DNA of 64,000 bases from an uncultured Clostridia bacterium. GTDB lineage: Bacteria > Bacillota > Clostridia > Oscillospirales > Ruminococcaceae. Under the pieces are notes generated by a model. It did no database searches and was not told the DNA's origin. It saw only the letters and a program-made list of their open reading frames with translations. Below, piece by piece: positions 5,032-51,250 of the stretch (positions are counted from its first letter, which is position 1; each line of letters opens with the position of its first letter). The position numbers and the translations under genes were made by a program. The stretch is taken from positions 124,001-188,000 of the forward strand of contig CAMCFA010000001.1 of NCBI GenBank assembly GCA_945873955.1. The letters are read 5' to 3'.

Positions 5032-5042
5032 GGAGGGCAAAG

Positions 5043-5489
5043 ATGAACAATAGCAAGTGGTTTTACTGCTTTAACTCTGATTGTGGCGACTGTTTCTCAG
5101 AATTGGAATGCGAAATTAAGGAAAATCCAAGTTATGAGGAACTGAATGCAATCGCGCAGGAGCTTCTTCGCGATTATGGCTACACCAGCGAATTTGATTA
5201 TGTGAGCATTGGCAAAGGTGAGCTTATCACAATCGAGGACTTGGGCGGCTGTTTAGGTAATGAGATTATCGAAATGCTTGAAAACAAAGCAATCGACTGT
5301 TACGACTGCGAAGAGCTTTTTTCCGGTGTAAGCAGAGAGGATATAAAAGACCTTGACAGCAGAATTAAGCAGGCACTCAAAGAATGGGCAAAAGAACGCA
5401 AAGGCGCTATGAGCTGCTACTACACAATCCCCGACCCGGAGTGTTTTTACTATCACGAGGATAAGGATAACGAGGAGGAACAGAAATGA
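5043..5489 (+). CDS. Acidic hypothetical protein (148 aa)
   Basis: No family recognised. The protein is strongly acidic, with several Cys residues near the N terminus (YCFNSDCGDC) and a Glu/Asp-rich C-terminal tail. It has a good AAGGAGGG site and its stop overlaps the start of the Rad50-like ATPase gene by 4 nt, so the two are translationally coupled. It may be an accessory of the recombination module. Confidence 0.65.
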   Translation: MNNSKWFYCFNSDCGDCFSELECEIKENPSYEELNAIAQELLRDYGYTSEFDYVSIGKGELITIEDLGGCLGNEIIEMLENKAIDCYDCEELFSGVSREDIKDLDSRIKQALKEWAKERKGAMSCYYTIPDPECFYYHEDKDNEEEQK

Positions 5490-7471: not shown

Positions 7472-7491
7472 TTTTGAAAGGAGAATTTATT

Positions 7492-8601
7492 ATGGCACAA
7501 ACCGAAAGCAAGCAGGAACTCACCAATGTTGAACAGACACCCACGGAACAGAAACAAACGCCCGTAGCGACACCCTCACAGCGGTTTACGAACCTTGTAA
7601 TCAGCGAGTTTGGGGCAGCAACGGCAAACCCTATTCAGCTCAGCGACAAGCAGAAGCGACTCATACAGGGCTATTTCATCATCATTGATAGACTTCTGAA
7701 AGACGCAGAGTCTAAGAGATTGGCGAAAAATGAGAGCAACACCAACCACCAGTACGACAATACTATTCCTTACGACTGGCAGCACGTTAATATGTCAGAC
7801 CTTGCGCTCGACGCCGTTCACGCAGCCAGAATGGGACTGGATATGCAGGAAGAAGCACATCTGTACCCTATTCCGTTCGCAAATAAGAAGAAAGGCTGTT
7901 ATGATATAGCGTTTATGGAGGGGTACGCGGGAAAGCAGTACAAAGCAGTAAAATACGCGCTTGTTCCCCCGAAAGCGGTCACTATTGAGGTCGTTTATAG
8001 TTCGGACAGATTCAAGGCTATAAAAAAGAGCAGGACGAACCCCTACGATACATACGAGTTTGAAATAACGCAGCCGTTCGACAGGGGAGAAATCGTCGGA
8101 GGCTTTGGGTATATTGAGTACAACGACCCCTATCAGAACGAGCTTGTCATATTAACGCTGAACGACATTAAAAAGCGGGCGCAAAAGGGCAGCGCTGAAT
8201 TTTGGGGAACGGAAATGACCGGCAAAAAGGTACAAATCTGGGAAAACGGAAACAAGACCTGGAGCAATGCGGAGGGCTGGCTCGACGAAATGGTGCGGAA
8301 AACTATAGTTCGCGAGGTTTACAGCAAGAAGCATATTCCGATTGACCCTGCGAAACTCGACGACGATTTCCAGTACTTCAAGGAGCGCGAAGTTGTATAT
8401 GCGCAGGCGGAAATTGACGAGGAGGCAGCCGAAAACGGCAACACAACACCGATAGACATACATCAGTCTGCTCCGCATGAACTTCCTCCAGCACCCATTG
8501 AGCAGCCTATGTCCGCACCTGCTGAACCCCAGCCGGTAGCGCAGGAACAGACGGACTTCACCACAGCACCGAGCGAAGCATACGAAGTACCTGACTTTTG
8601 A
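7492..8601 (+). CDS. recT: RecT-family single-strand annealing protein (369 aa)
   Basis: Promotes annealing of complementary single strands during phage recombination and replication. The core (about residues 40-300) has the family layout, including MSDLALDAVHAARMGLDMQE, the lysine-rich centre and the FDRGEIVGGFGYIEY segment. The C-terminal 70 residues are a Pro/Gln/Glu-rich disordered tail. ATG 7492 is used because GAAAGGAG lies just upstream. It follows the Rad50-like ATPase gene and precedes an MBL-fold gene, the usual order in Clostridia phage recombination modules. Confidence 0.9.
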   Translation: MAQTESKQELTNVEQTPTEQKQTPVATPSQRFTNLVISEFGAATANPIQLSDKQKRLIQGYFIIIDRLLKDAESKRLAKNESNTNHQYDNTIPYDWQHVNMSDLALDAVHAARMGLDMQEEAHLYPIPFANKKKGCYDIAFMEGYAGKQYKAVKYALVPPKAVTIEVVYSSDRFKAIKKSRTNPYDTYEFEITQPFDRGEIVGGFGYIEYNDPYQNELVILTLNDIKKRAQKGSAEFWGTEMTGKKVQIWENGNKTWSNAEGWLDEMVRKTIVREVYSKKHIPIDPAKLDDDFQYFKEREVVYAQAEIDEEAAENGNTTPIDIHQSAPHELPPAPIEQPMSAPAEPQPVAQEQTDFTTAPSEAYEVPDF

Positions 8602-8602
8602 T

Positions 8603-9304
8603 ATGGATATAAAGGTTATAGCGTCTGGGAGCAGCGGCAATGCCACGATAATAAGCGACGGCAAAACCGCGCTCCTGCTGGACGCAGGAATATCAATCAA
8701 AGACTTGGAGCGCGGGAGCGGCTTTACGCTCTCTCGCGTTTCTGCTTGTTTTGTTACGCACGAACACCAAGACCACAGCAAAGCTTGTAAAGACCTCGCA
8801 AAGCGCGGCATTGACATTTACGCAAGCGCGGGAACACTCCGAACAATCAACGCAGACGGACATAGATACAAGGCGGTTTTGCCTCTCACTACCTTTTCTG
8901 TCGGTACTTTCGACATTATGGGGTACGACGTTAAGCACGACGCAGCCGAACCGTTAGGGTATCTGCTTTACAGCAGACAAACGAGCGAAAAACTACTTTA
9001 TTTCGTAGACACCGCCTATGTACGATACTCTTTCTCCAACGTTGATTATTTCGTGGTTGAATGTAACCACGGAGAACAGGAGCTACGCGATAGCGTAAGC
9101 AGCGGCATAATATCGCCGGAGCTTGCCGCCAGAATTGCCAAGAACCATTTCAGCTTAGAAAGGCTTTTGAATTTTCTCAAAGCGAATGACTTGTCAAAAG
9201 TGAGAGAGATACACCTCGTTCACCTTTCCGACAATAACAGCAATGAGCGGAGGTTTAAGCAGGAAGTCCAAAGAGCGACGGGCGTACAAGTTTATATCCA
9301 TTAG
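8603..9304 (+). CDS. MBL-fold metallo-hydrolase, YycJ/WalJ-like (233 aa)
   Basis: A metallo-beta-lactamase-fold protein; phage members beside recT are thought to act as nucleases in recombination. The metal-binding THEHQDH motif is at about residues 51-57. The N terminus SGSSGN is typical of the YycJ/WalJ branch. It starts 1 nt after the recT stop with little ribosome site of its own, which suggests translational coupling. Exonuclease activity is inferred from the family and the neighbours. Confidence 0.85.
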   Translation: MDIKVIASGSSGNATIISDGKTALLLDAGISIKDLERGSGFTLSRVSACFVTHEHQDHSKACKDLAKRGIDIYASAGTLRTINADGHRYKAVLPLTTFSVGTFDIMGYDVKHDAAEPLGYLLYSRQTSEKLLYFVDTAYVRYSFSNVDYFVVECNHGEQELRDSVSSGIISPELAARIAKNHFSLERLLNFLKANDLSKVREIHLVHLSDNNSNERRFKQEVQRATGVQVYIH

Positions 9305-9320
9305 AGAGGAGGTATGCAAA

Positions 9321-10142
9321 GTGGCAGTAGCGGTAACACTCTACGAAACCGAGATTGGAGTGCTTTTGTCCTTGTCAGAGGAACAGCGCGGACGCATACT
9401 CACAGCGATACTCTGCGATACAACAGGAAAAGAACTTCCCGAAATGGACGCGTCGGACAACGCTATATTCACTCTCGTTAATGCACAGGTTAAAAGAGCA
9501 GCCGAATTGTCGAACAAACGTAAGCAAAGCGCTAAATCGCGTTGGCAAAACCAAGCAACCGACGACAGTAACGGCGAACAGGAAGAACAAGGCGATACAA
9601 CGGCAATGCAAAACGATACAAACAATCTGCAAAACGATACAAGCGGAGATATTTGCACAGATTTGCATAATACAAACCAATGCACTATAACGAATACGAA
9701 TACCATAACCAAGACGAATACGAATACGATAACCACGACGGAAACGGGAACGAATACGGAAGCCACACCTGCGCCCGCTAATTCTGACGAAAGCAAACCC
9801 AAAAAGCCTAAAAAATCTGCTCCCGAAAAGAAGCGCTATGCTGATTTCGTCACTTTGACGGAGGAGGAATACAACAAACTCGTAGAGCAATACGGAACAG
9901 AAGCTGTAAAATGGTGCATACAAAAGCTGGATAACTACAAAGGCTCGACAGGAAAGAAATACGCCAGCGATTACAGAACTATTCTCTCGTGGGTAATTGC
10001 AAGTTACAACGAAGAACAGGCGAAGCACAATCAGCCGGCGCAAACTATACCGCCAAGAGGCTTAAAGCTGGAACAACAGCAAGCCAAGAGCCGAAACCCG
10101 TTTATAAACGCGGTTCTGAACGGAGGCGGCGACAATGGGTGA
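9321..10142 (+). CDS. Phage replication initiator-like protein (273 aa)
   Basis: Probably the origin-binding or helicase-recruiting replication protein. Start GTG 9321 is set by GAGGAGG 8 nt upstream. The N-terminal domain resembles the DUF6291-type N terminus of phage replication proteins. Then comes a low-complexity linker rich in Thr and Asn (repeats of TNT) encoded by repeated ACGAATACGAATAC-type DNA. The C-terminal domain (LTEEEYNKLVEQYGTEAV, then KLDNYKGSTGKKYASDYR) is the DnaD-like conserved C terminus of phage initiators. It lies directly before the helicase-loader-like gene, with an 8-nt overlap. Confidence 0.72.
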   Translation: MAVAVTLYETEIGVLLSLSEEQRGRILTAILCDTTGKELPEMDASDNAIFTLVNAQVKRAAELSNKRKQSAKSRWQNQATDDSNGEQEEQGDTTAMQNDTNNLQNDTSGDICTDLHNTNQCTITNTNTITKTNTNTITTTETGTNTEATPAPANSDESKPKKPKKSAPEKKRYADFVTLTEEEYNKLVEQYGTEAVKWCIQKLDNYKGSTGKKYASDYRTILSWVIASYNEEQAKHNQPAQTIPPRGLKLEQQQAKSRNPFINAVLNGGGDNG

Positions 10143-10704
10143 CGAATACAAAATTATCCCGACAGACAAGACCTGGCTATCAATCCAAACTGAGAATGCG
10201 CTCCCGATTGAAATCATAAACTCACAGCTTCTTGTATTACAAACGGCGTTTCCGACAATCGTAAGAAATTACGACGAATACGAAGTCCAAGCCTTACAGC
10301 AATTATGGTACGACATATTCAAAAACGTGCCGGAACAGCTAATGAGGGAGGCTATTAAGCGGTTTATCATCAACGACCGAAAAGGCTTTTTCCCCTCTCC
10401 AGGACAGATTGTCGGAGAGATTGAGCAAATCGTCGCGGAGCAGAAAGAGGCGGAGTTGATGAAGCGTATGCTTGAACACCAAGAAGCAATGTGGGAATAT
10501 GATAGGCTCGTCGAAAAGGGAGAGAACTGCTCCAACTGCGAATTTTGCAGGAGGGAAACGGAATACGGTAGCGAAAAGATGTTCTGCAAAAATGCGCAAA
10601 GCATTAACTACGAGGGAACGAGAAAAGTGGAAGTTTGCAAGAGCCTCCGCTGTGAGTTCTTCAACTGGGCAAAGGCAGCTATTGAGGAGGGAGAGCAGAC
10701 GTGA
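10135..10704 (+). CDS. Replicative helicase loader/inhibitor-like protein (189 aa)
   Basis: The central part (FPSPGQIVGEI and flanking helices) resembles the G40P-loader family that delivers the replicative helicase to the origin. A C-terminal four-cysteine cluster (CSNCEFC, then CKN, CKSLRCEF) probably binds zinc. It overlaps the initiator-like gene upstream and the RusA gene downstream (GTGA overlap), so it sits in a tightly coupled replication operon. No helicase gene is visible in the window, so the phage probably uses the host helicase. Confidence 0.7.
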   Translation: MGDEYKIIPTDKTWLSIQTENALPIEIINSQLLVLQTAFPTIVRNYDEYEVQALQQLWYDIFKNVPEQLMREAIKRFIINDRKGFFPSPGQIVGEIEQIVAEQKEAELMKRMLEHQEAMWEYDRLVEKGENCSNCEFCRRETEYGSEKMFCKNAQSINYEGTRKVEVCKSLRCEFFNWAKAAIEEGEQT

Positions 10705-11117
10705 TTAGTTTTGTAGTTGCGGGAAAGCCGCAGGGCAAAGCGCGACCGAGATTTGACAGCCGCAGGAAAATCACCTATACACCAAAAAAGACCAAAAGTT
10801 ACGAATCGCTTGTGCGCACCAGTTATCTAACACAATGCCGAAACGAGTCTCCGCTGCGCGGAGCAGTCAAAGCAAATATAATCGCATACTTCCCTATCCC
10901 CAAGAGCGCAACGAAAGCAGAACGCGAGAAAATGCTGGCAGGGGAATTAAGACCCACGGTTAAGCCGGATATGGATAACATCATCAAGGCTATTCTCGAC
11001 GCGCTGAACGGATATGCGTACAAGGACGACGCGGCGGTGGTTGAGGTGGAAGCCGAAAAATGGTATTCGGACACTCCGAGAGTCGCGGTAATACTTACGG
11101 ACGGAGGTACACTATGA
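10701..11117 (+). CDS. rusA: RusA-family Holliday junction resolvase (138 aa)
   Basis: Cuts branched DNA intermediates during phage replication and packaging. The family signature KPDMDNIIKAILDALNG and the following YKDDAAV supply the catalytic aspartates. The N terminus (GKPQGKARPRF) is also typical, and the length is normal. The GTG start overlaps the previous stop as GTGA, and the following HNH gene starts inside its stop (ATGA). Confidence 0.92.
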   Translation: MISFVVAGKPQGKARPRFDSRRKITYTPKKTKSYESLVRTSYLTQCRNESPLRGAVKANIIAYFPIPKSATKAEREKMLAGELRPTVKPDMDNIIKAILDALNGYAYKDDAAVVEVEAEKWYSDTPRVAVILTDGGTL

Positions 11118-11488
11118 GCGAACATAAGCGACGCAGGCTGTCGAAAGACGAACGGCGAAATATACTCAGAAAGACTGATGGGCATTGCGCCTACTGCGGT
11201 TGCAAACTCAAATACAACGAAATGCAGATAGACCACATTGTCCCGATACACGCAGGCGGAGAAGATAACGAATACAATATGCTCCCTGCTTGCAAAAGCT
11301 GTAATCACTACAAGGGTGGAAGCAGCCTCGAAACATTTCGAAAGTTTGTTGAGAAAATGCCGGACACATTGAAGCGGGACAGCGTTACATATCGCAATGC
11401 GGTTAGATTTGGGCTTGTTGTTCCGAAACCGAGAAAGGTCATATTTTACTACGAAAAGATGAAAAACAGGAGGAAGCCGAATGAATAG
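11114..11488 (+). CDS. HNH endonuclease (124 aa)
   Basis: A compact HNH nuclease: CAYCG, then DHIVPIHAGG with the catalytic His, then NMLPACKSCNHYKGG completing the zinc-binding CxxC pairs. The start is ATG 11114, preceded by GGAGGT and overlapping the rusA stop. The C-terminal 50 residues are a basic helical extension. In this setting it may assist recombination or packaging rather than homing, since it is embedded in an operon without self-splicing features. Confidence 0.88.
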   Translation: MSEHKRRRLSKDERRNILRKTDGHCAYCGCKLKYNEMQIDHIVPIHAGGEDNEYNMLPACKSCNHYKGGSSLETFRKFVEKMPDTLKRDSVTYRNAVRFGLVVPKPRKVIFYYEKMKNRRKPNE

Positions 11489-11912
11489 AATTATACTTAT
11501 GGGACGAATTGCCAATGACCTGGAGCTTAAAACCACTCCGACCGGAACAACGGTATGTTCGTTTAGACTTGCTGTTGACCGCAATCATCAGAAAAAGGAC
11601 GTGGAAAAAGCGACCGACTTTTTCAATGTTGTTTGCTGGAGGGCAACAGCGGAGTTTGTTACGAGATGGTTCAACAAAGGAAATCTCATTATTGTTGAGG
11701 GCGAAATGCAGACGCGGCAGTACACTGACAAAAACGGCAATCCGCAGACGTGGTACGAAGTTGTTGCGCAGAATGTCCATTTCACCGGAGAGAAAACAGG
11801 TAATACAAGCGCGGAAGCACCGAAAGCACCGCAGGCTGGCACAACTGCTCCTGTTGAAAATCCCGCAAACACAGCAACAGAGCCACCAGCAGATGATGAT
11901 TACCCATTCTAA
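11481..11912 (+). CDS. ssb: Single-stranded DNA-binding protein (143 aa)
   Basis: An OB-fold SSB starting with the classic MNRIILMGRIANDLELK, with FFNVVCWRATAEFV and GNLIIVEGEMQTRQYTDK in the expected places. A Pro/Ala-rich linker ends in the acidic DDDYPF tip that binds partner proteins. It coats single-stranded DNA at phage forks and works with the RecT annealing protein. It overlaps the HNH gene by 8 nt. Confidence 0.95.
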   Translation: MNRIILMGRIANDLELKTTPTGTTVCSFRLAVDRNHQKKDVEKATDFFNVVCWRATAEFVTRWFNKGNLIIVEGEMQTRQYTDKNGNPQTWYEVVAQNVHFTGEKTGNTSAEAPKAPQAGTTAPVENPANTATEPPADDDYPF

Positions 11913-11924
11913 CAGGAGGTTACT

Positions 11925-12128
11925 ATGGAATCGCAGGAAATTATAGAAGCCGCAAAGAAGCGGCTGCCCGTTGTTTATGACGGCACTGTTTACAAGGAAA
12001 TTCTGGAATATATCTTGTGGTTTGACAGCAACAGGAACAAGCAGCGCTCGGTAGTGTTGCTCGACCAGAACGGACATACCACGGTCCGCGTTCTCGCAAG
12101 CAAAATCAGCCTTGCGGAGAACGTATAG
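11925..12128 (+). CDS. Small hypothetical protein (67 aa)
   Basis: No family recognised. It has an N-terminal helix followed by a beta-rich segment (SVVLLDQNGHTTVRVLASKI). A good ACAGGAGG site stands 7 nt upstream. Between ssb and the DNA methyltransferase gene; small proteins of this type are frequent here in Clostridia phages. Confidence 0.65.
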   Translation: MESQEIIEAAKKRLPVVYDGTVYKEILEYILWFDSNRNKQRSVVLLDQNGHTTVRVLASKISLAENV

Positions 12129-12143
12129 GAAAGGAGCGGTCAA

Positions 12144-13964
12144 ATGAAAACCGAAAGCGACAAGCGACTCACGCTCGGAAGCCTTTTCGACGGCATAGGC
12201 GGTTTTCCGTTTTGCGCGGCTCTTTCGGGAATTACCCCGATATGGGCGGCAGAGGTTGACCCCGCTTGCGTGGCAGTTACGAAGCAGAGATTTCCGAATA
12301 TGAAACATCTCGGCGACGTTTCCAAAATCAACGGTGCGGAGATACCGCCGGTGGATATTATAACGTTCGGAAGCCCCTGCCAAGACCTGTCGGTCGCAGG
12401 CGAAAGAAAAGGCTTGAAGCACGTTGATAACGGCAGCGACGAAACCACGCGGAGCGGGCTGTTTATTGACGCGATAAGAATTGTTTACGAGATGAGGGAG
12501 GCAACAAATGGACGCTATCCAACTTACATTGTTTGGGAGAACGTCGAGGGAGCTTTCAACTCCCGCGGTGGCAGAGATTTTCAAACGGTGTTGGAAAAAA
12601 TCACAAAGACCGATATTCCAGTACCTCAATCTGGAAAATGGGCAAAAGCAGGAGTGGTTCGAGGGGGGGGAGTTTGCGCAGCCTGGCGACTCCTCGACGC
12701 TCAATATTGGGGAGTCCCCCAGCGTCGAAAGCGTATCTACCTTATCGGAAGTTTTGGAAGCGATAGTTCCGCTGAAATACTTTTTGAGTGCGACAGCGTG
12801 CAACGGTATCTTGCGCCGCGCAAGGAACAGGCACAAACCTCTCCCGACGTTGTTGGAAAAGGCGTTACAAGAGCAAGCGGATTTTTGGATAGAAATTCAG
12901 CAAAAGCCAGGGGAATAGGTTATCAAGAAGAATGCTCACCGACATTAAGAGCAGGAATGCTACCGTCCGTAGTAAAAGAAAATGTTTTGCTTTATGACGC
13001 GCGTGGGAACGGCGACGGGATAATAAGTCCGACGATAACAGGCGACCACAACAACCGGGTCACGGATTATACGGCACTGGTAGTTCAAAATTACCCTTTC
13101 CAAAAAGGTACACGCCCTCATTCAGCAGACGAAGCCCCCTCATACAAAGAAGCAGTAGTAGCAAACACGCTTAATTGCTTTGACGTGGGAGAAAGCCGTT
13201 GTAATGAGCTTATTGTTCAATCAGCAGGCTTTCACGGTCAGAACAGTATAACGGCGGCGGGGGTTGAACTGCGGGAGGAGCAATCTCCCACATTGACGAC
13301 TACCAAGAACGCAGATGTTGTGTATGCCATAGGAAACGGGCAATCAGCCCAGACCGACCTCCACAAATTAACCTACGCGCTTGATTGTATGCACGACCAG
13401 CAGGCGGTGATATATACGATTGACCGTGCCGCCTTTAACCAGGGCGAAAACGCGCTCTACGAGCCGAGAATAAGCGACGACGGCACAAACTCTACGCTCG
13501 TCGCAAAAGGACCGGGAGCGGTTGCGTATAGCATAGATTGCCGAAATTTCAAGGAAAACGAAGAATTGTTCCCTACATTACAGGCAAAGGAAAACGGAGG
13601 TATTTCCCTTAACTTTTGCGGAGCGGTAATGTACAAGCTGTATCTGACGCTGAAATGGATAGTCCGCAGGCTGACACCACGGGAATGCGAACGCTTGCAG
13701 GGCTATCCAGACGATTGGACAGTATTGCCGAAAATCTCGGAGATGAACGACGAAGATTACGAGTTCTACAAAGCGGTTTTTCTGCTTGACAAATCTATCA
13801 GAGGTAAGGCTACCACCAAAGAGCCGGACAAGAAGAAGCTTATCCGCTGGTACAACGGTCTTGACAACGACGGAGCGAGATACCGTATGCTTGGAAATTC
13901 GCTTGCTATCCCCTGCGCGTTGCGTGTTATCGGGTACATAGCAGACTATGAGAGGGGGAATTGA
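12144..13964 (+). CDS. C5-cytosine DNA methyltransferase with long SPTL-repeat insert (606 aa)
   Basis: Transfers a methyl group from AdoMet to C5 of cytosine in DNA. Motif I (LFDGIGG, about residues 14-20), motif IV GSPCQ with catalytic Cys79, motif VI ENV (132-134), motif VIII QRRKR (193-197), motif IX RECERLQGYPDDW (about 512) and motif X GNSLAIPCAL (about 582) are all present. Between VIII and IX, in the target-recognition region, is an insert of about 270 residues with at least four repeats of the type SPTLRAG/SPTITGD/SPTLTTT/FPTLQAK. The eight-G run at 12663-12670 leaves the frame intact. It probably protects phage DNA from host restriction, and could supply 5-methylcytosine for further modification by the cassette at 20023-25861 (inference). 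Confidence 0.9.
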   Translation: MKTESDKRLTLGSLFDGIGGFPFCAALSGITPIWAAEVDPACVAVTKQRFPNMKHLGDVSKINGAEIPPVDIITFGSPCQDLSVAGERKGLKHVDNGSDETTRSGLFIDAIRIVYEMREATNGRYPTYIVWENVEGAFNSRGGRDFQTVLEKITKTDIPVPQSGKWAKAGVVRGGGVCAAWRLLDAQYWGVPQRRKRIYLIGSFGSDSSAEILFECDSVQRYLAPRKEQAQTSPDVVGKGVTRASGFLDRNSAKARGIGYQEECSPTLRAGMLPSVVKENVLLYDARGNGDGIISPTITGDHNNRVTDYTALVVQNYPFQKGTRPHSADEAPSYKEAVVANTLNCFDVGESRCNELIVQSAGFHGQNSITAAGVELREEQSPTLTTTKNADVVYAIGNGQSAQTDLHKLTYALDCMHDQQAVIYTIDRAAFNQGENALYEPRISDDGTNSTLVAKGPGAVAYSIDCRNFKENEELFPTLQAKENGGISLNFCGAVMYKLYLTLKWIVRRLTPRECERLQGYPDDWTVLPKISEMNDEDYEFYKAVFLLDKSIRGKATTKEPDKKKLIRWYNGLDNDGARYRMLGNSLAIPCALRVIGYIADYERGN

Positions 13965-45150: not shown

Positions 45151-46004
45151 TTGACATTTCCACTTACCTAAACCGCATTACGAGCGAGCATAAGGTCAGA
45201 CCAAAGTTTATGGCACTCGTGGAAGCAAGATTAAAGCCATTCGTTGAGCTTTTCGAGCTTTTGGAGGAAATCGACAAAGCATTCGACCTAGATACAGCGG
45301 AGGGAAACCAGCTTGACATAATAGGGCAATACGTCGGCGTTAGCAGGCTATTAGATTTCCAGCCGAATAACGCAGAACCACTACTCCCAGACCCATATTA
45401 CCGAATGCTGCTGAAAGCGCGTATCAGTTTGAACAATTGGGACGGGAGCATTGAGGGCATAAAAAAGATTTGGGGAGATGTGTTCCCCGAATACGAAATC
45501 CAAATTGTCGATAACCAAGATATGACAATGGAAGCCCGCATTATAGGGCTTGAAACGCTGTTCGAAAACGAGCTTGTTCAGCACGGATATATTACGCCAA
45601 AGCCTATGGGCGTACTGATTGATTACTCCGTTGTGTTCTCAATCAAGCTAGATACCAGGCTGTTTATCGGGAATATGGTATATAACAGGCACTTAGAAAA
45701 GACCTTGCCAACTCCTGCACCTCCGGCGGATAACAGTAAGCCGCCCGGAATAGTTTACGCAATGGGTGTAAACGCTGCAAATTCCGTAACAATGCAGACG
45801 CAGGGAAAACCGCCGCCCGATAAAATCACCTTTGAGGAAGAAGCGCTGTTCCTTGGAGGGGCGAAAGCCGACAGCAGCGTTACAGTCACCTTGCAAGCAA
45901 AGCCTCCGTCAAGCGGGGTAATGGTAGGAAATGAGAAATTTTTTGCGGGAGGCGCTTTAGTAGCAAATTCAATACGAAGCACAATTGAAACACAAATTCA
46001 GTAA
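45147..46004 (+). CDS. Baseplate protein, DUF2612 type (285 aa)
   Basis: The N-terminal 180 residues are DUF2612: FDLDTAEGNQLDIIGQYVGV, then NWDGSIEGIKKIWGDVFPEY. It takes the place of the tail protein I. The C-terminal third is Pro/Ser-rich with two beta repeats (ANSVTMQTQGKPPPDK, DSSVTVTLQAKPPSSG). It overlaps the J-like gene by 4 nt. Confidence 0.82.
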   Translation: MIDISTYLNRITSEHKVRPKFMALVEARLKPFVELFELLEEIDKAFDLDTAEGNQLDIIGQYVGVSRLLDFQPNNAEPLLPDPYYRMLLKARISLNNWDGSIEGIKKIWGDVFPEYEIQIVDNQDMTMEARIIGLETLFENELVQHGYITPKPMGVLIDYSVVFSIKLDTRLFIGNMVYNRHLEKTLPTPAPPADNSKPPGIVYAMGVNAANSVTMQTQGKPPPDKITFEEEALFLGGAKADSSVTVTLQAKPPSSGVMVGNEKFFAGGALVANSIRSTIETQIQ

Positions 46005-46016
46005 GGAGATGAAAAA

Positions 46017-46889
46017 ATGGCAAATGTTGTAACGCAATGGAACCCTTTTATTATTACGAACAAGGGACTTGAACTGCGCCAGCGGTCAATCGCTACGGGA
46101 GCAACCATAACATTCAACTACGCCAAAATCGGACAGGGAGTACCCAGCAACCCCGCGAACATTCCGTTAATGACGGATATTGTTTCGGCAGCGGAGCAAG
46201 TACCTGTTGTGAGGTCTGAGTCAGACGGCGTGACACACTATGTCGGAATACGGATTGACAATGTTACTTTCAATCAGCCCGTCCTTATGACGGAAATCGG
46301 ACTTTTCGCTTCAATCGGCGGAGAAGCTCCCGTACTGTACGGATATACATACGCTACACAGGGCTATGACAGTATACCGGCAGGAAGCACCAGTCACTAC
46401 ATCTGGACGGTAAGCATTGATACGGTAATATCGAGGGCGCAGAGCATTTCTTTCTCTTACGACGGGAGCAAGGTATACGTCACCGAAGCCGAAATGGACG
46501 CTTTAATTCAAGCGTGGGAAGCCTACAAAGATGAAGTCGGAAGCGACGACCTCCACGGAGCAGTAAACCAGCACTCCACCGATATTGGCTATCTGTTCAA
46601 GGTGGCAGAGAACAATCGAGAGCTTGTTATGAACGTTGAGTTGAGAAACACGGAAACCGAGCCGCTGTGGTTCAACAATTCGGCGGCTACCGTAGCTTTT
46701 CCGAGCGGTCAAAACCGAAACAACCTCGATTACACAGTCCAGAGCGAAATCGTGAAAGCCACGGGCGGCGACGCAGGAGAAATTGTTGTTTCTGCCAAGC
46801 AGCTTAACGGATTCACGGTCAGCTATACAGGAACAGCGTCGGAAGTGGCGCTGAAACTCTATGTAAAAGGAGGATTGTGGAAATGCTGA
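46017..46889 (+). CDS. Tail fibre protein, N-terminal attachment domain (290 aa)
   Basis: It has the start of the phage tail-fibre/collar family (WNPFIITNKGLELRQRS, YAKIGQGVPSNPANIP and a VLMTEIGLFASIGGEAPVLY core), so it attaches to the baseplate. The C-terminal third is short and beta-rich, without a long shaft, so it may act as an adaptor for the DGR-diversified protein encoded next but two. Confidence 0.82.
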   Translation: MANVVTQWNPFIITNKGLELRQRSIATGATITFNYAKIGQGVPSNPANIPLMTDIVSAAEQVPVVRSESDGVTHYVGIRIDNVTFNQPVLMTEIGLFASIGGEAPVLYGYTYATQGYDSIPAGSTSHYIWTVSIDTVISRAQSISFSYDGSKVYVTEAEMDALIQAWEAYKDEVGSDDLHGAVNQHSTDIGYLFKVAENNRELVMNVELRNTETEPLWFNNSAATVAFPSGQNRNNLDYTVQSEIVKATGGDAGEIVVSAKQLNGFTVSYTGTASEVALKLYVKGGLWKC

Positions 46890-47056
46890 TTAAAAGCAAG
46901 AGCGACGAACAGAAACGGGAAGAAGCGAAAATTATACACGACTTCCACGGAAACCCTAACAGCTCCATTCATCAGGAGGCTGCGGAGGCTATAGCCAGAC
47001 ACAGCCGCGAACAGGTAAAGGAGCTTAACGACAGAGAGGAAAGGTATCGCAGATGA
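46883..47056 (+). CDS. Small helical protein (57 aa) in the tail-fibre operon
   Basis: ATG 46883 follows AAGGAGG 7 nt upstream and overlaps the fibre stop; the stop overlaps the next ATG (ATGA). The sequence is charged and helical (SDEQKREEAKIIHDFHGN, EAIARHSREQVKELND). The coupled overlaps on both sides make it a probable gene despite its size. It could be a fibre chaperone; function unknown. Confidence 0.6.
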   Translation: MLIKSKSDEQKREEAKIIHDFHGNPNSSIHQEAAEAIARHSREQVKELNDREERYRR

Positions 47057-47400
47057 ATATTGTGTACAAAACCCCCGAAGCCGAAAACAATCACATTGCT
47101 TATTCAATTAAGGGAAGCAAGATTACATTCGGCGACGACGAAAAAATGCTGAATTTGGCAAAGTACGAGAAAGACGACGCGGTGCATATCACGGACAGCG
47201 TGGACGCAAACGGAAACCTCGTAGGCAATAGCAACGGCTTGTATTACGCCTATGAGATTGATATTCCCGCGCGGGAATACAAGTATGTGACAGACGAAAG
47301 CGGAGAGCAGGACGAAAGCGGAACGTCCAAGACGCAGAAAATCCCCGTTCCTTTCGATATGGACAAATGCACACTTACACTTTGGAAACTGGAGGTATGA
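47053..47400 (+). CDS. Tail-region hypothetical protein (115 aa)
   Basis: No family recognised. A beta-rich protein (IKGSKITFGDDEKMLNLAKY, YAYEIDIPAREYKYVTDESG) that starts in the stop of the 57-aa gene and ends 4 nt before the DGR target gene. It is probably part of the tail tip or a chaperone for it. Confidence 0.62.
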   Translation: MNIVYKTPEAENNHIAYSIKGSKITFGDDEKMLNLAKYEKDDAVHITDSVDANGNLVGNSNGLYYAYEIDIPAREYKYVTDESGEQDESGTSKTQKIPVPFDMDKCTLTLWKLEV

Positions 47401-47404
47401 AAGA

Positions 47405-48442
47405 ATGTCGAGAATTTCTGATATGCAGTATGCGGCGGCGCAGTTTGGAGCGTCAAACCGCGTAATTGTGGACGACACAGGTATGGGCGGATTTTACGTC
47501 GCTGTTCCCAAAATGACAAATGCGCAGCTTATGACAGGCGGTGATAGCGCTGTACACCCTGCTTTTATCGTTGGCGGGGAGGAAAAGAGCGAGATATTGA
47601 TTGCGAAATATCCGGCTTTTGTTAAAAACAACCGCGCTTACAGCCTGCCCGGTGTAGACCCAAGTGTATATGTAAACTTCGACCAGGCGCTCTCTTATTG
47701 CAGGAACAAGGGCAAAGGACATCACTTGATTACAAATGCAGAGAGGGCTATGCTCGCGCTGTGGTGCAAGATGAATAACACTATGCCGAGAGGTAATACA
47801 AACCACGGCTCAAGCTCCGACAGCCCCACGGAGATAGGTATTCCGGTTGCGACAAATTCTGGGGCGACAAAGACCGGTCCCGCATACCCCGGTTGGTATC
47901 ACAACGGAGATTTAAGCGGAATTTCCGACCTTGCGGGAAACGTGTGGGATTGGTGCGCGGGACTTAGGTTAATGAACGGAAAGATACAGGTAATTCCCAA
48001 CAACGACGCGGCGCTCGATACGGCGGATATGGGAGCAGCGAGTACGCAGTGGAAAGAAATTCTTGCCGCAGACGGAAGTCTTGTTGACCCCGGAACAGCG
48101 GGAACGCTGGGCTTCGACTGGCTGTCGAACAAGATTACTATGACTTCTAACGCAATCACAGACACTTCCGGCGCTTCGAGAAGCACCGGATTTGAGGCGC
48201 TTGCTTTGGACACAGGACTTGCAGCAGTTCCGCAGATTATAAAGTCGCTCTGCTTATACAAGAACGACGAAAGCGGCTACAATACGGACAACGTTTGGGC
48301 TAATTTGAGCGGCGAGAGAATGCCGCTTCGCGGCGGCTCCTTCGGCGTTGGTGCGGGCGCGGGTGTGTTCGCGCTGTCCCTCGACTCTGTGCGGTCGCGT
48401 GTCTCCGACCCCCTTGGCTTCCGCGCCGCTTTTGTATCTTAG
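47405..48442 (+). CDS. DGR target: tail-tip protein with FGE/C-type-lectin fold (345 aa)
   Basis: The receptor-binding protein that the retroelement diversifies. The C-terminal 200 residues have the formylglycine-generating-enzyme-type CLec fold seen in DGR targets: FDQALSYCRNKGKG, LSGISDLAGNVWDWCAG, then the RGGSF...GFRAAF ending. Residues 307-343 are encoded by the variable repeat; only Val-Ser follow before the stop. Relative to the template, residues 312, 314, 315, 318, 325, 327, 328, 332, 334, 336 and 337 are changed (template Tyr, nine Asn, Ile), 319 is silent, and 335 is unchanged. The N-terminal 100 residues probably fix it to the baseplate. Located at the end of the tail genes, just before avd. 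Confidence 0.92.
   Translation: MSRISDMQYAAAQFGASNRVIVDDTGMGGFYVAVPKMTNAQLMTGGDSAVHPAFIVGGEEKSEILIAKYPAFVKNNRAYSLPGVDPSVYVNFDQALSYCRNKGKGHHLITNAERAMLALWCKMNNTMPRGNTNHGSSSDSPTEIGIPVATNSGATKTGPAYPGWYHNGDLSGISDLAGNVWDWCAGLRLMNGKIQVIPNNDAALDTADMGAASTQWKEILAADGSLVDPGTAGTLGFDWLSNKITMTSNAITDTSGASRSTGFEALALDTGLAAVPQIIKSLCLYKNDESGYNTDNVWANLSGERMPLRGGSFGVGAGAGVFALSLDSVRSRVSDPLGFRAAFVS
48323..48433 (+). repeat. DGR variable repeat (VR), 111 bp
   Basis: It aligns without gaps to the template repeat at 48918-49028. The 20 differences all fall on template adenines (A to G, C or T); no other base differs. The first 16 bp (CCGCTTCGCGGCGGCT) and the last 20 bp (TTGGCTTCCGCGCCGCTTTT) are adenine-free and identical. 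The 3' identical block is the likely initiation-of-mutagenic-homing site. It ends 9 nt before the target gene's stop, including the stop codon. Confidence 0.95.
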
Positions 48443-48463
48443 TTCTTTGCGGCTTGCGTTTTG

Positions 48464-48487
48464 TTTGCTCCGCGATAGCGGAGTAAA
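48464..48487. other. Hairpin/cruciform with GATA tetraloop downstream of VR
   Basis: TTTGCTCCGC and GCGGAGTAAA form a 10-bp stem (one G-T) around GATA. Stems of this size with a GRNA-type tetraloop are known just downstream of VR in phage DGRs, where they mark the target for homing. Here it is 30 bp after VR. It lies in the gap between the target's stop and the avd start. Confidence 0.65.
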
Positions 48488-48521
48488 CTCCGCAGGCAGT
48501 GAGAGAAAGGGAAAACTCCAA

Positions 48522-48884
48522 ATGCAGGAAATAAAGGAATTGTCAATCCTCACCAAAATTCACGATATGGCAAAATATGCCTACCCAGCCTTAATGCAGT
48601 TCCCCAAAAGCGAGAAATTCGCGCTGGCGGCTGACATAAAGCGGTGTATAGATTTTGTTTTGGAAAAAGCCATAGAGGGAACAAAGGGCTACTATAAAAA
48701 GACAACTCTCCGCGATATGGACGTTGGACTGCTTAAACTCCGACATTACATACGGCTTTCGGCAGAGCTTGGATTTCTACCGACGAAAAAGTATGAAATC
48801 TGGGCTGGAATGGTAACGGAAATCGGGAAAATGCTCGGAGGCTGGATAAAGCAAGAGCAGGAAAGCGACAAATACAAACAATAG
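48522..48884 (+). CDS. avd: DGR accessory variability determinant, four-helix bundle (120 aa)
   Basis: Avd-type protein that binds the reverse transcriptase and template RNA in phage DGRs. All-helical sequence of the right length, with the characteristic KIHDMAKYAYPALMQFPKSE and KFALAADIKRCIDFVLEKAI helices and LKLRHYIRLSAELGFL later on. The start is ATG 48522, preceded by GAGAGAAAGGG; longer upstream frames run back through the VR and are not credible. The order target-VR-avd-TR-RT is the same as in the Bordetella phage element. Confidence 0.9.
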   Translation: MQEIKELSILTKIHDMAKYAYPALMQFPKSEKFALAADIKRCIDFVLEKAIEGTKGYYKKTTLRDMDVGLLKLRHYIRLSAELGFLPTKKYEIWAGMVTEIGKMLGGWIKQEQESDKYKQ

Positions 48885-48917
48885 GCGAAAGCCTTTTGTT
48901 TTGGGGACAAGCTGTTT

Positions 48918-49028
48918 CCGCTTCGCGGCGGCTACTTCAACAATGGTGCGAACGCAGGTGTGTTCGCGCTGAACCTCAACAATGTGCGGTCGAATGTCAA
49001 CGACAACATTGGCTTCCGCGCCGCTTTT
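48918..49028 (+). repeat. DGR template repeat (TR), 111 bp, and TR-RT spacer
   Basis: Template for mutagenic cDNA. It has 22 adenines, arranged mainly as nine AAC/AAT codons in the VR reading frame, plus one TAC, GCA, GAC and ATT. Twenty of the 22 positions differ in the current VR. Because nearly all adenines are in codon positions 1-2 followed by C or T, mutation cannot produce a stop at AAY sites. The 222 bp from 49029 to the RT start hold no gene; a small inverted repeat (GACG...CGTC near 49132-49145) is visible. In other DGRs this spacer is part of the priming RNA, and the same is likely here. Confidence 0.95.
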
Positions 49029-49250
49029 TCTCGTAGTCAGATGTTGCAAGTTTACGGACTTGTTTCCAGTACAGAGAAGAAAAAGGAGCTTGTTTCCGCG
49101 CCAAAAGCAGAAGTGAAGTATTGACGAGCGACACGTCGTTAAACAGAGAGCGTACTCTCGGAGAGCCGGAGGCGAAAAATACAACAGCCGCGAAGTCTGT
49201 AATAGGTGTAATCCGAATCATACGAAGTGCGGCAATTTGAGGAGCAATTT

Positions 49251-50465
49251 GTGAAACCGATAAAAGGACTATGGGAACAGATTGTATCGTATGAAAATCT
49301 GCTCGAAGCGTATAAATCAGCAGCGAAAGGCAAGAGATTTCGTCCAGAGGTACTTATCTACACAGACGACCTTGAACACAATCTCTCCCGCCTGCAAAGC
49401 GATTTGATGAATGGCACATACAAGACGGGACGCTATCACGAGTTCTATGTTTACGAGCCGAAAAAGCGCCTCGTTATGGCACTGCCTTTTTACGACAGAG
49501 TAGCGCAATGGGCGATATATAGAGTTCTTAACCCCTATTTGGCAAAGGGTTATATCAAAGACAGTTACGCCTGCATTGACGGCAGGGGCATACACGCAGC
49601 GTCGGCTAGACTGAAATATTTTGCGGGATTGATTGAGAGAGAAAACGGCGGAAAGGGCTATTATTTGAAGCTCGATATAAGCAAGTATTTCTACCGTATA
49701 AATCACGAGGTTTTGTTGAAACTGTTGCGGAAACGTTTCGGTGACAGGGAGCTTATCTCCGTTCTCGAACGGATTGTATGTTCTGATGTACCGTTTGGAT
49801 TGCCGTTAGGAGCAAGCCCTGGTGAAGCGAAACGGATATATGGCGTAGGTATGCCGATTGGCAACCTCACCAGCCAGATGTTCGCGAACTTTTATTTGAA
49901 CGAGGTAGACCAATATATAAAGCGCGAACTGAAAGCACACTGCTATGTGCGGTATATGGACGATATGATAATCGTTGCGAAAGAGAAAAGCGAACTGCAC
50001 GAGTACCGCCGAAAAATTGAACGGTTTTTGAACAGAGAGCTGAAACTGAACTTGAACGAAAAGACTACCGTACGTCCGTTATCGCTCGGCATTGATTTCT
50101 GTGGCTATAAGGTGTGGTCAACACATATTAAGCTACGGAAGCAGACAGCACTAAAGATGAAGCGACGATTGAAGAAGCTGGAGAAAGACTACGCGGTCGG
50201 AGCTGCCTCCTTAGATGATGTTAAGAGAACGTTAGCGTCGTATAACGGCGCATTATCCCATTGCGACGGCTATTTGTTGAGCCGAGAGGTATTCGGAATT
50301 TACGAAGAAAACGGAGGCGAATGGTACAATGGTTGGTTCACCCTCCGTCGCCGTCAGCAAGTGGAAAATGAAAGCGAGAGCAGGAATGTTGAGCAGCACA
50401 AAAATCATAGAAGATTTAAGCGCTATTATCGAGAAGCAGACACAGATAATTCTCGATATGTATAA
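49251..50465 (+). CDS. DGR reverse transcriptase (404 aa)
   Basis: Copies the TR RNA with adenine-specific infidelity. Fingers/palm motifs are in order: LVMALPFYDRVAQWAIY, KLDISKYFYRINHEVLL, then GMPIGNLTSQMFANFYLNEV with the DGR-typical IGNLTSQ (203-209), and catalytic YMDD at 235-238. The thumb region follows (LNLNEKTTVRPLSLGIDFCG). GTG 49251 is chosen since GAGGAG lies 6 nt upstream; the in-frame GTG at 49227 has no site. The 3' end overlaps the next small gene by 137 nt. All catalytic residues are intact, so the element should be active. Confidence 0.95.
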   Translation: MKPIKGLWEQIVSYENLLEAYKSAAKGKRFRPEVLIYTDDLEHNLSRLQSDLMNGTYKTGRYHEFYVYEPKKRLVMALPFYDRVAQWAIYRVLNPYLAKGYIKDSYACIDGRGIHAASARLKYFAGLIERENGGKGYYLKLDISKYFYRINHEVLLKLLRKRFGDRELISVLERIVCSDVPFGLPLGASPGEAKRIYGVGMPIGNLTSQMFANFYLNEVDQYIKRELKAHCYVRYMDDMIIVAKEKSELHEYRRKIERFLNRELKLNLNEKTTVRPLSLGIDFCGYKVWSTHIKLRKQTALKMKRRLKKLEKDYAVGAASLDDVKRTLASYNGALSHCDGYLLSREVFGIYEENGGEWYNGWFTLRRRQQVENESESRNVEQHKNHRRFKRYYREADTDNSRYV

Positions 50466-50559
50466 AACCTTATCCCAGCACGACGCGGCGGAGGCTTACG
50501 ACAATGCTCTGCGGGAAATCCAAGAGGCAAAATACGCGGCGGAAAACGAAAGGAGGTGA
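50329..50559 (+). CDS. Small helical protein overlapping the RT gene end (76 aa)
   Basis: It starts at ATG 50329 (GGAGG 11 nt upstream) inside the 3' end of the RT gene in another frame. The N terminus MVGSPSVAVSKWKMKARAG is followed by a long helix (IIEDLSAIIEKQTQIILDMY, KTLSQHDAAEAYDNA). Similar short proteins are found after fibre genes in Clostridia phages. ATG 50368 is an alternative. Role unknown. Confidence 0.55.
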   Translation: MVGSPSVAVSKWKMKARAGMLSSTKIIEDLSAIIEKQTQIILDMYKTLSQHDAAEAYDNALREIQEAKYAAENERR

Positions 50560-50563
50560 TTAT

Positions 50564-50929
50564 ATGGATAGCGCGATTGTAGTTGCACTGATTTCGGGAG
50601 CGTTTACGGTTTTCAACGTGATTTTCACTACACTCTCCGCGCGTTCTGCAAAAAAGCAGACGGAGAAGTTCGCTGAAGAAAGCAAGTTCAACGAGGAACA
50701 CCGTAATATCGGGGACGGCGTACAGTGCCTTTTGAGGGCGGAGATTATACGCTGCCACGATAAATACACGGCTCGGAAGTATTGCCCTGTTTACGCGAAA
50801 GAGAACCTAAACAGAGCATACACAGCATACCACAACTTGGGCGGAAACGACATAGCAACGGCGTTATATGATGCTTGTATGGAATTGCCGGAACAGCCGC
50901 CAAACGAGGAGAACGAAGATGAGGAGTAG
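50564..50929 (+). CDS. Small membrane-anchored phage protein (121 aa)
   Basis: An N-terminal hydrophobic segment (VVALISGAFTVFNVIFTTL) followed by a soluble helical domain and acidic tail. Location just before the holin gene suggests a lysis accessory protein, such as a spanin-like or holin-regulating membrane protein. The start is ATG 50564 after GGAGGTG. Family not recognised. Confidence 0.65.
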   Translation: MDSAIVVALISGAFTVFNVIFTTLSARSAKKQTEKFAEESKFNEEHRNIGDGVQCLLRAEIIRCHDKYTARKYCPVYAKENLNRAYTAYHNLGGNDIATALYDACMELPEQPPNEENEDEE

Positions 50930-50944
50930 GGAGGCATAACCAAT

Positions 50945-51250
50945 ATGTGTATCAAAGAAAAGAAAGACGCTGGAACAACAACCAGCAAAAAGATACTTAT
51001 CGCGTCCTATATCATAGCGGGCATTCTTACAGTGCTTGTGGTTGTCGGAATGATATTCGGCTACGACGTTTCCGCACTGAGTATCATCACCAGCGCGGCA
51101 TACGCAGAGGTCGGTGTCAGTAACGGTTTTTACTACAATAAGGCAAAGAAAGAGAACGTTATGAAAATAGCGATTGGCTGTGTACGCGAAACTCCCGAAC
51201 AAGCCGCCGACCTGGCGGCGATAATCTCTGCATTAGGAGGGGTATTATGA
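50945..51250 (+). CDS. Putative holin or lysis membrane protein (101 aa)
   Basis: One clear transmembrane helix (ILIASYIIAGILTVLVVVGM) and a second, weaker hydrophobic stretch, with a basic N terminus. It overlaps the next holin gene by 4 nt and precedes the endolysin. The two membrane proteins probably form the holin pair; which is the pore former is uncertain. Confidence 0.68.
   Translation: MCIKEKKDAGTTTSKKILIASYIIAGILTVLVVVGMIFGYDVSALSIITSAAYAEVGVSNGFYYNKAKKENVMKIAIGCVRETPEQAADLAAIISALGGVL

What the first reader, a model, noticed from the sequence alone, without database searches (positions are those of the whole stretch)
48323..50465. Complete, apparently active diversity-generating retroelement in the prophage tail module
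VR (48323-48433) and TR (48918-49028) are both 111 bp, align without gaps and differ at 20 positions. All 20 are adenines in the TR; zero differences are at other bases. 20 of 22 TR adenines are changed, which means a strongly diversified copy and probably several rounds of homing. An avd-type gene lies between VR and TR and an intact reverse transcriptase (IGNLTSQ, YMDD) follows. The arrangement target-VR-avd-TR-RT is that of the Bordetella phage DGR. The element should vary the phage's receptor-binding tip at 11 residues.
Basis: partly seen in the sequence, partly recalled or inferred. Interest (0 to 1): 0.9.

Follow-up and report, generated by a model that had tools for sequence, protein, structure and literature searches.

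The report
Phage gene-mutating retroelement in a prophage
A bacterial virus dormant in a Clostridia genome carries a complete, well-known type of gene-diversifying machine that rewrites the end of one of its tail-region proteins, probably to change which cells it can grip; the machine is ordinary of its kind, but its RNA part helps give a role to an RNA family known mainly by a number.

Summary
VR (48323-48433) and TR (48918-49028) are 111 bp, ungapped, with 20 differences, all at the TR's 22 adenines. This is a canonical Avd-type diversity-generating retroelement (DGR): FGE/C-type-lectin target, VR, avd, TR, spacer RNA, reverse transcriptase, in a contractile-tail prophage. No other VR copy was found in the 3.47-Mb assembly. 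'Several rounds of homing' does not follow, since each event overwrites VR; 20/22 is high against 325/631 in 24 related pairs. Activity of this copy is inferred, not shown. Class: new member of a known kind. By-product: of 26 RT-14 loci found by RNA model alone, 24 hold a homologue of this RT and 16 a TR ending within 25 nt of the RNA's start, so RT-14 is probably the RNA of this DGR lineage.

The parts
47405..48442 (+). Target gene (345 aa), FGE-type C-type-lectin protein homologous to TaqVP; VR codes residues 307-343, two residues before the end
   Evidence: Pfam FGE-sulfatase 1.2e-7; PHROG 2889 (unknown function) 4.7e-113; PDB 5vf4 1.4e-60, with a profile 1.6e-104 over nearly the full length; 5VF4 = T. 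aquaticus DGR variable protein
48323..48433 (+). Variable repeat (VR), 111 bp, 20 differences from TR
48463..48488 (+). Hairpin/cruciform GTTTGCTCCGC-GATA-GCGGAGTAAAC (11-bp stem with one G.T, GRNA-type tetraloop), beginning at base 30 after VR
   Evidence: like the GRNA-loop element described for phage DGRs (PMC3240598 passages)
48522..48884 (+). avd, accessory variability determinant (120 aa)
   Evidence: Pfam bAvd 3e-27; PHROG 3206 'Avd protein of DGR' 7.9e-34; NCBIfam DivGenRetAVD above cut-off
48918..49028 (+). Template repeat (TR), 111 bp; 13 adenine-bearing codons, none able to become a stop
49024..49223 (+). Spacer RNA, Rfam RF02921 (RT-14), between TR and RT; candidate priming adenine 49039 in a GUCAG motif (inferred)
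   Evidence: 48.7 bits against gathering 48.1, E 9.6e-6 in a 451-base scan; not reported in the whole-window scan and 40.4 bits, under the cut-off, with stricter filters; helix pairing 0 of 5000 permutations; motif survey
49227..50465 (+). Reverse transcriptase of DGR type (412 aa; start may be GTG 49251)
   Evidence: RVT_1 2.2e-20; PHROG 1423 2.7e-134; PDB 8ub7_A 8.6e-49; IGNLTSQ and YMDD; tree
47053..47400 (+). Small gene (115 aa, PHROG 8734) just before the target, with homologues in many related loci
   Evidence: 14 other loci by tblastn, 13 distinct as L012 and L023 are the same sequence
46017..46889 (+). Tail-fibre-like protein upstream of the target module
   Evidence: PHROG 7037 tail fiber 8.3e-22, C-terminus PHROG 9010

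Best explanation
A complete phage DGR of the BPP-1 kind. The TR region is transcribed; the spacer RNA (RT-14 type) after TR recruits the RT-Avd complex and starts cDNA synthesis into the TR; the RT misreads template adenines; the cDNA replaces VR, 37 codons near the C-terminus of the target gene, guided by the shared 3' end and by the GATA-loop hairpin after VR. TR stays unchanged. Twelve of the 13 adenine-bearing codons can change their residue, which allows about 2.5e12 protein variants and no stop codon. The target, a TaqVP-like lectin-fold protein encoded between tail-fibre and lysis genes of a contractile-tail prophage, most probably binds the host surface. Shown here: anatomy, adenine-only signature, family membership of each part, conserved spacer RNA and hairpin. 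Inferred: transcription, priming, homing, receptor binding, present activity.
For: 20/20 differences at TR adenines, chance 4e-20. Avd above NCBIfam cut-off. RT nearest in PDB to 8ub7_A, whose partner chain 8ub7_B is named Avd, and on the DGR side (33 rows, incl. BPP-1) of a 97/96 branch from 7 group-II-like RTs. Of 24 other pairs kept, 18 have the full order VR-avd-TR-RT and 19 have no non-adenine difference. Five named phages incl. BPP-1 have A-biased pairs (BPP-1 17/23 A, 0 other; three of five with 0 other). Hairpin after VR in 17 of 25 pairs, window included, against 0.5% of shuffles and 1 of 25 after TR. Spacer RNA RT-14. No stop reachable from TR. Target homologous to TaqVP. DGR activity has been reported for phage Lagaffe, whose RT is 47% identical (statement in PMC11792537 passages). 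Prophage: integrase PHROG 95, HTH protein and host genes at right, terminase, portal, protease, head, sheath, tape measure, baseplate, endolysin, holin-like protein under its cut-off.
Against: No near-identical relative or reads were found, so activity of this copy is untested; closest RTs are 67-69% identical. Six of the 24 other pairs do not have the full order: in L030, L038 and L040 VR lies after the RT, and in L041, L042 and L011 no avd homologue was found between VR and TR; five of 24 have 1-2 non-adenine differences. The RT-14 score is only just over its cut-off here, and below it under stricter filters. Direct Avd likeness to the solved BPP-1 Avd is weak (0.0024 and 0.017). No attachment repeat was found.
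Confidence: 0.96

Rival explanations
1. A DGR that is complete in anatomy but no longer works (a fossil): VR was diversified in the past and is now frozen.
For: No variation data for this copy; one related Anaerovorax locus (L004) shows such decay, having lost VR and avd, unless the assembly collapsed there.
Against: The genes are open, the hairpin and spacer RNA are present, and TR and VR show 0 non-adenine differences in 111 bp, so no ordinary mutations have built up since the last homing.
Confidence: 0.15
2. Duplicate repeats of a tail gene that diverged by chance or by ordinary selection, with a reverse transcriptase nearby by coincidence.
For: TR and VR are alike and both close to the RT.
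Against: Adenine-only pattern has chance 4e-20; the same order in 18 of 24 other pairs; specific Avd and DGR-type RT.
Confidence: 0.005
3. The target is not the host-receptor binder but another surface-exposed virion protein (for instance one that sticks to mucus or other matter).
For: PHROG 2889 is of unknown function; the target is homologous to TaqVP, for which I saw no receptor role (passages only).
Against: It follows a tail-fibre-like gene and baseplate genes, and the related FP_Lagaffe target is annotated as BPP-1 Mtd-like.
Confidence: 0.2

Closest known systems
Bordetella phage BPP-1 DGR (mtd-avd-TR-brt)
   Same: Order target(VR)-avd-TR-spacer-RT; adenine-only TR/VR differences (17/23, 0 other); GRNA-loop hairpin after VR (passages; sequence); motif PIGxLTSQ and YMDD; structured RNA between TR and RT.
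   Different: RT only 33% identical; spacer RNA belongs to another Rfam family (RF03022 Phage_DGR in BPP-1, RF02921 RT-14 here); target resembles TaqVP by sequence, and no Mtd chain appeared up to E 1 in the PDB sequence search.
Faecalibacterium phage FP_Lagaffe DGR (MG711461/NC_047911)
   Same: Same layout with Mtd-like target, Avd-like protein, RT and lysis gene after it; RT 47% identical; A-only TR/VR pair 13/25.
   Different: PMC11792537 passages report two variable regions for Lagaffe_CP; only one VR was found in the window's genome. No RT-14 match in L061 up to E 1.
Bacillus phage BalMu-1 RT cassette
   Same: RT 51% identical; TR/VR pair 10/22 A, 1 other; RT-14 RNA above cut-off.
   Different: The gene is annotated only as retron-type RT; that it is a Mu-type phage is read from its name.
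TaqVP, Thermus aquaticus DGR variable protein (PDB 5VF4)
   Same: Homologous over nearly the whole length, VR at the C-terminus.
   Different: Other host; sequences of the variable regions differ.

Membership tests
Diversity-generating retroelement (DGR) | TR/VR pair whose differences face adenines of the TR | tested here: met
   20 of 20 differences at A
Diversity-generating retroelement (DGR) | RT of the DGR clade ([I/V/L]GxxxSQ in place of QGxxxSP) | tested here: met
   PIGNLTSQ, YMDD; on the DGR side of a 97/96 branch, 40 rows. The motif rule is recalled
Diversity-generating retroelement (DGR) | VR inside a protein-coding gene, usually in a C-type-lectin fold | tested here: met
Diversity-generating retroelement (DGR) | Avd or other accessory protein | tested here: met
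   NCBIfam DivGenRetAVD 109.4 bits, cut-off 80
Diversity-generating retroelement (DGR) | Shared 3' end (IMH-like) and hairpin after VR | tested here: met
   last 20 bp identical, 12 of 20 G or C; hairpin 48463-48488
Diversity-generating retroelement (DGR) | Unidirectional transfer TR to VR with new variants arising | not testable with these tools
   no reads, no sister strain of this phage found
Rfam RF02921 RT-14 RNA | Score at or above the gathering cut-off | tested here: met
   48.7 against 48.1 bits in a 451-base scan; not reported in the whole-window scan, 40.4 bits under stricter filters
Rfam RF03022 Phage_DGR RNA | Match to the BPP-1 type spacer RNA | tested here: not met
   no match up to E 10 in 48880-49330; BPP-1 scores 104.7 bits

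The most novel reading that the evidence does not exclude
Rfam's RT-14 RNA is the template-launching RNA of a broad Avd-type DGR lineage in Bacillota and, by sub-threshold matches, in some gammaproteobacterial phages: it begins at the last bases of TR, folds by a helix that spans the TR/spacer border, holds the RT-Avd complex, and offers the adenine of its GUCAG/GCCAG motif (49039 here) as the primer nucleotide, as a spacer adenine does in BPP-1.
Probability: 0.55. Interest if true: 0.45.

Novelty: new member of a known kind. Interest (0 to 1): 0.33.

Why it matters
By itself it is one more phage DGR, a well-studied kind. It adds a genome that carries two complete, related DGRs with homologous targets on two contigs, so that cross-talk can be asked: none is visible, since each VR is fully explained by its own TR. 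It also ties an RNA family known mainly by a number (RT-14) to a concrete job in DGRs, which would make RNA control of mutagenic copying testable outside BPP-1, and gives 25 natural TR/VR pairs for comparing error spectra with the one enzyme studied closely at the bench.

Tried and rejected
Further VR copies in the host genome: blastn of TR against the whole assembly gave only TR and VR. Close relatives for an activity test: none found; nearest RT 69%, best IMG/VR 54%, phage records share only short pieces at 60-80%.

'Several rounds of homing': rejected as an inference. Under the error rates quoted in PMC12875486 (30.65% in E. coli, 51.2% in vitro; passages) a single copy gives 20 or more of 22 with probability 6e-9 or 9e-5; even with all four bases equally likely it is 0.06. 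Rounds do not cure this, because each overwrites the last (my reasoning).

Cross-talk of the two DGRs in this genome: in simple global alignments TR1 and VR2 share 64 bases and TR2 and VR1 62, the longer repeat being 114, against 0 non-adenine differences within each pair: no trace.

Activity within one genome in Anaerovorax: L005 and L006 carry identical VRs, so they give no evidence. Prophage ends: no convincing direct repeat; the only match of 14 or more bases between the flanks searched was a 16-mer far outside. Rfam scan of the whole window at gathering threshold gave nothing; the short scan did. RNAalifold on the MAFFT alignment missed the outer helix; own-against-cross pairing found it. 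A strict hairpin search (perfect stem) found 11 of 25, 7 of them with GRNA loops; the tolerant one 17 of 25, 13 with GRNA loops.

Rows dropped before the pair count of 25: L001, L002, L033 (the window again), L034 (part of L003), L006 (same VR as L005), L023 (same sequence as L012), L009 and L045 (doubtful pairs), the second pair of L041 (84 bp, 17/19 A, 3 other) and reverse-strand echoes in L008, L009, L029. The first scan gave no pair in the remaining loci held at that time: L004, L010, L013-L015, L017, L020, L021, L031, L035, L037, L039, L043, L044 and L046-L052, several of them cut short or not DGRs; a looser scan of most of these added only doubtful pairs in L010. Tree rows dropped: L007, L049, L051 (short or weak). 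For the motif survey I took the 25 pairs and 13 more loci: 4 phages and 9 of the RNA-model loci on the + strand.
Full report
Observation. The window was read at 46000-51000 and VR and TR aligned. Both are 111 bp without gaps. A script counted 22 A in the TR and 20 differences, all at A (C 8, G 8, T 4); the two unchanged adenines are TR positions 62 and 86. If 20 differences fell anywhere in 111 positions, the chance of all being at the 22 A is 4e-20. VR is in frame with the target gene (47405-48442) and codes residues 307-343 of 345; 12 codons differ and 11 residues change.

Parts. Target: FGE-sulfatase domain, PHROG 2889, PDB 5vf4 with E 1.4e-60, and with a 15-sequence profile 1.6e-104 over nearly the full length including the VR. 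Passages of PMC6328139 state that 5VF4 is TaqVP, a T. [quoted passage not shown] Avd: Pfam bAvd, PHROG 3206, NCBIfam equivalog above cut-off. RT: PHROG 1423; best solved relative 8ub7_A at 8.6e-49, against 2.2e-18 for the best group II intron RT; the same entry's second chain is named Avd. In a tree of 40 RTs the window's RT pairs with L003 (100/99) and lies with BPP-1 and 31 other rows apart from seven group-II-like RTs (branch 97/96).

After VR, at 48463-48488, is an 11-bp imperfect stem with a GATA loop. Passages of PMC3240598 describe for phage DGRs GC-rich stems of 7-10 bp, 4-nt loops of consensus GRNA, 4-34 bp after VR, and show the structure to be needed for homing in BPP-1. In my 25 pairs (window included) 17 have such a hairpin within 90 nt after VR (13 with GRNA loops), 1 has one after TR, and 0.5% of shuffled flanks do. 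Between TR and RT the sequence 49024-49223 matches Rfam RF02921, RT-14, just over its cut-off. The whole-window scan had not reported it, and stricter filters score it 40.4 bits, below the cut-off.

Comparison set. Of the 25 pairs, 22 have VR upstream of TR, 19 have an avd homologue between VR and TR with the RT after TR, and 20 have no non-adenine difference; L003, L008, L024 and L038 have one and L011 two. In L030, L038 and L040 the VR lies after the RT. Five named phages, fetched as yardsticks, have pairs with 17/23, 10/22, 13/25, 7/24 and 15/26 adenines changed and 0, 1, 0, 0 and 2 other differences.

Spacer RNA. RT-14 matches lie at the same place in the relatives: above cut-off in 6 of the 9 non-phage loci scanned and in BalMu-1 (BPP-1 scores RF03022 Phage_DGR instead), 6 of 8 loci above cut-off, L003 just under it, L008 without a match, L032 and L025 above, L053, L062, L063 and L065 below, L061, L029 and L040 without, L041 with RT-18. 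Pairing of the strand at the TR/spacer border with the strand before AAAGG is better within than between 17 sequences (0 of 5000 permutations as good), and an inner hairpin shows compensatory changes in 5 of 9 predicted pairs. As an independent test I searched three sets of whole genomes with the RNA model alone: 3 of 394, 12 of 398 and 12 of 391 genomes matched at E 0.001 (1, 10 and 10 over the cut-off), the window's own genome being one of each set. Leaving the window out, 27 loci were examined: 25 have a homologue of the window's RT (tblastn E up to 1e-3) in the stretch held, about 1.5 kb either side, and 17 have a TR ending within 25 nt of the RNA's start. L064 lies within L007, which had come from the RT search, so the independent figures are 24 of 26 and 16 of 26; L073 and L078 are two RT-14 copies 593 bp apart on one contig, so they are not independent of each other. 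L084 and L085 show no RT in the stretch held; L073, L077-L081, L084, L086, L087 and L089 no TR/VR pair at that place by my scan. In L079-L081 and L083 the RT lies upstream, in L089-L091 (L087 apart) on the other strand where an RT was found. The SQ motif was seen in 16 of 27 by a crude pattern that looked only downstream and has at least one false match (L074). G[T/C]CAG occurs within 30 nt after TR in 24 of 38 DGRs surveyed, about 0.05 expected per locus. In BPP-1 position 56 of the spacer is the A of GUCAG; that A56 is the priming nucleotide is recalled, while the introduction of PMC12875486 (that section read) says that an internal spacer adenine primes. The link to 49039 here is inference. 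A search for RT-14 RNA, RF02921, Phage_DGR or RF03022 gave no paper in the held library; the paper that I recall as the source of the family is not held, so I cannot say whether the DGR link is in print.

Degree of change. In the 24 other pairs 325 of 631 adenines are changed (0.32 to 0.79 per pair); the window has 20 of 22, the highest (Fisher 2.6e-4; heterogeneity p 0.0035 with and 0.073 without it). Several rounds cannot explain it, since each homing event rewrites VR from TR; a higher error rate of this RT, or selection on the target, could. In the pooled VRs (window included) the second A of AAC became G 70 times and C 13 times, while BPP-1's enzyme in E. coli raises G in the cDNA, that is C in the sense strand, in that context (PMC12875486 passages); the window's own VR has C 3 and G 2 there. 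Natural VRs are selected, so this is a lead only. The TR's 13 adenine codons cannot become stops; 4 of 381 such codons in all 25 TRs can.

Setting. The prophage has an integrase (PHROG 95) at window -1052 to 555, read by me as the large serine type, an HTH protein on the minus strand at 980-1552 that looks like a repressor, terminase, portal, protease, head, tail sheath, tape measure and baseplate, tail fibre, DGR and endolysin, and a holin-like protein under its family's cut-off. Host genes begin at about 57.6 kb (GGDEF protein, chorismate synthase and others); the exact ends were not found. The DGR and its neighbours follow the order of FP_Lagaffe. The nearest RT (69%) is in an uncultured Clostridia genome of the same genus (L003, of which G019's L034 is part).

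Second DGR. On contig C8 of the same genome are a homologous target (VR 6246-6359 of L053), avd, TR 6889-7002 (14 of 22 A changed, 0 other) and RT, between baseplate and lysis genes. Its RT is 41% identical to the first. Several DGR loci in one genome are not new: Anaerovorax sp. IOR16 has three RT loci of this kind, and PMC11792537 passages report DGRs with two variable regions.

Verdict. PMC8144416 passages report over 30,000 DGRs, broadly active, with three mainly phage-borne lineages that seem to diversify attachment proteins, which makes activity here likely but not shown.

Noticed in passing
L053:5275-8264 (G000:C8): A second complete, related DGR (target, VR, avd, TR, RT) beside baseplate and lysis genes on another contig of the same genome.
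   Followed up: yes
L004:3743-6193 against L005:3174-6193: One of three Anaerovorax sp. IOR16 DGR loci has lost VR and avd; the single remaining repeat carries three adenine changes in its first 39 nt and then follows TR, as if VR and TR had recombined (or the assembly collapsed).
   Followed up: partly
L065, L067-L091: Rfam RT-14 RNAs found by the RNA model alone sit near homologues of the DGR RT in 24 of 26 loci; in L079-L081, L083 and L089-L091 the RT lies upstream or on the other strand, so other layouts exist.
   Followed up: partly
L073/L078 (G666:C59:7394-8135): Two RT-14 RNA copies 593 bp apart on one contig, with an avd homologue before them and an RT after them; possibly a DGR with two templates.
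   Followed up: no
L041:1422-1503: A DGR spacer here matches Rfam RT-18 (74 bits) instead of RT-14, so other numbered RT RNAs may also be DGR RNAs.
   Followed up: no
L012:9440-9505: Type II hammerhead ribozyme about 3.4 kb after the DGR RT of Selenomonas ruminantium; a weak, sub-threshold one lies on the other strand in L019.
   Followed up: no
47053-47400: A 115-aa gene of unknown function (PHROG 8734) precedes the DGR target, with homologues in 13 distinct related loci; possibly a linker or chaperone for the target.
   Followed up: partly
3986-13964: PAPS-reductase-like protein, SMC/AAA-type ATPase with weak likeness to defence ATPases, and an orphan C5 DNA methylase in the left part of the prophage.
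   Followed up: partly
25 TR/VR pairs, window included: Second adenine of AAC goes to G more often than to C in natural VRs (70 against 13), unlike the spectrum reported for the BPP-1 enzyme in E. coli.
   Followed up: partly
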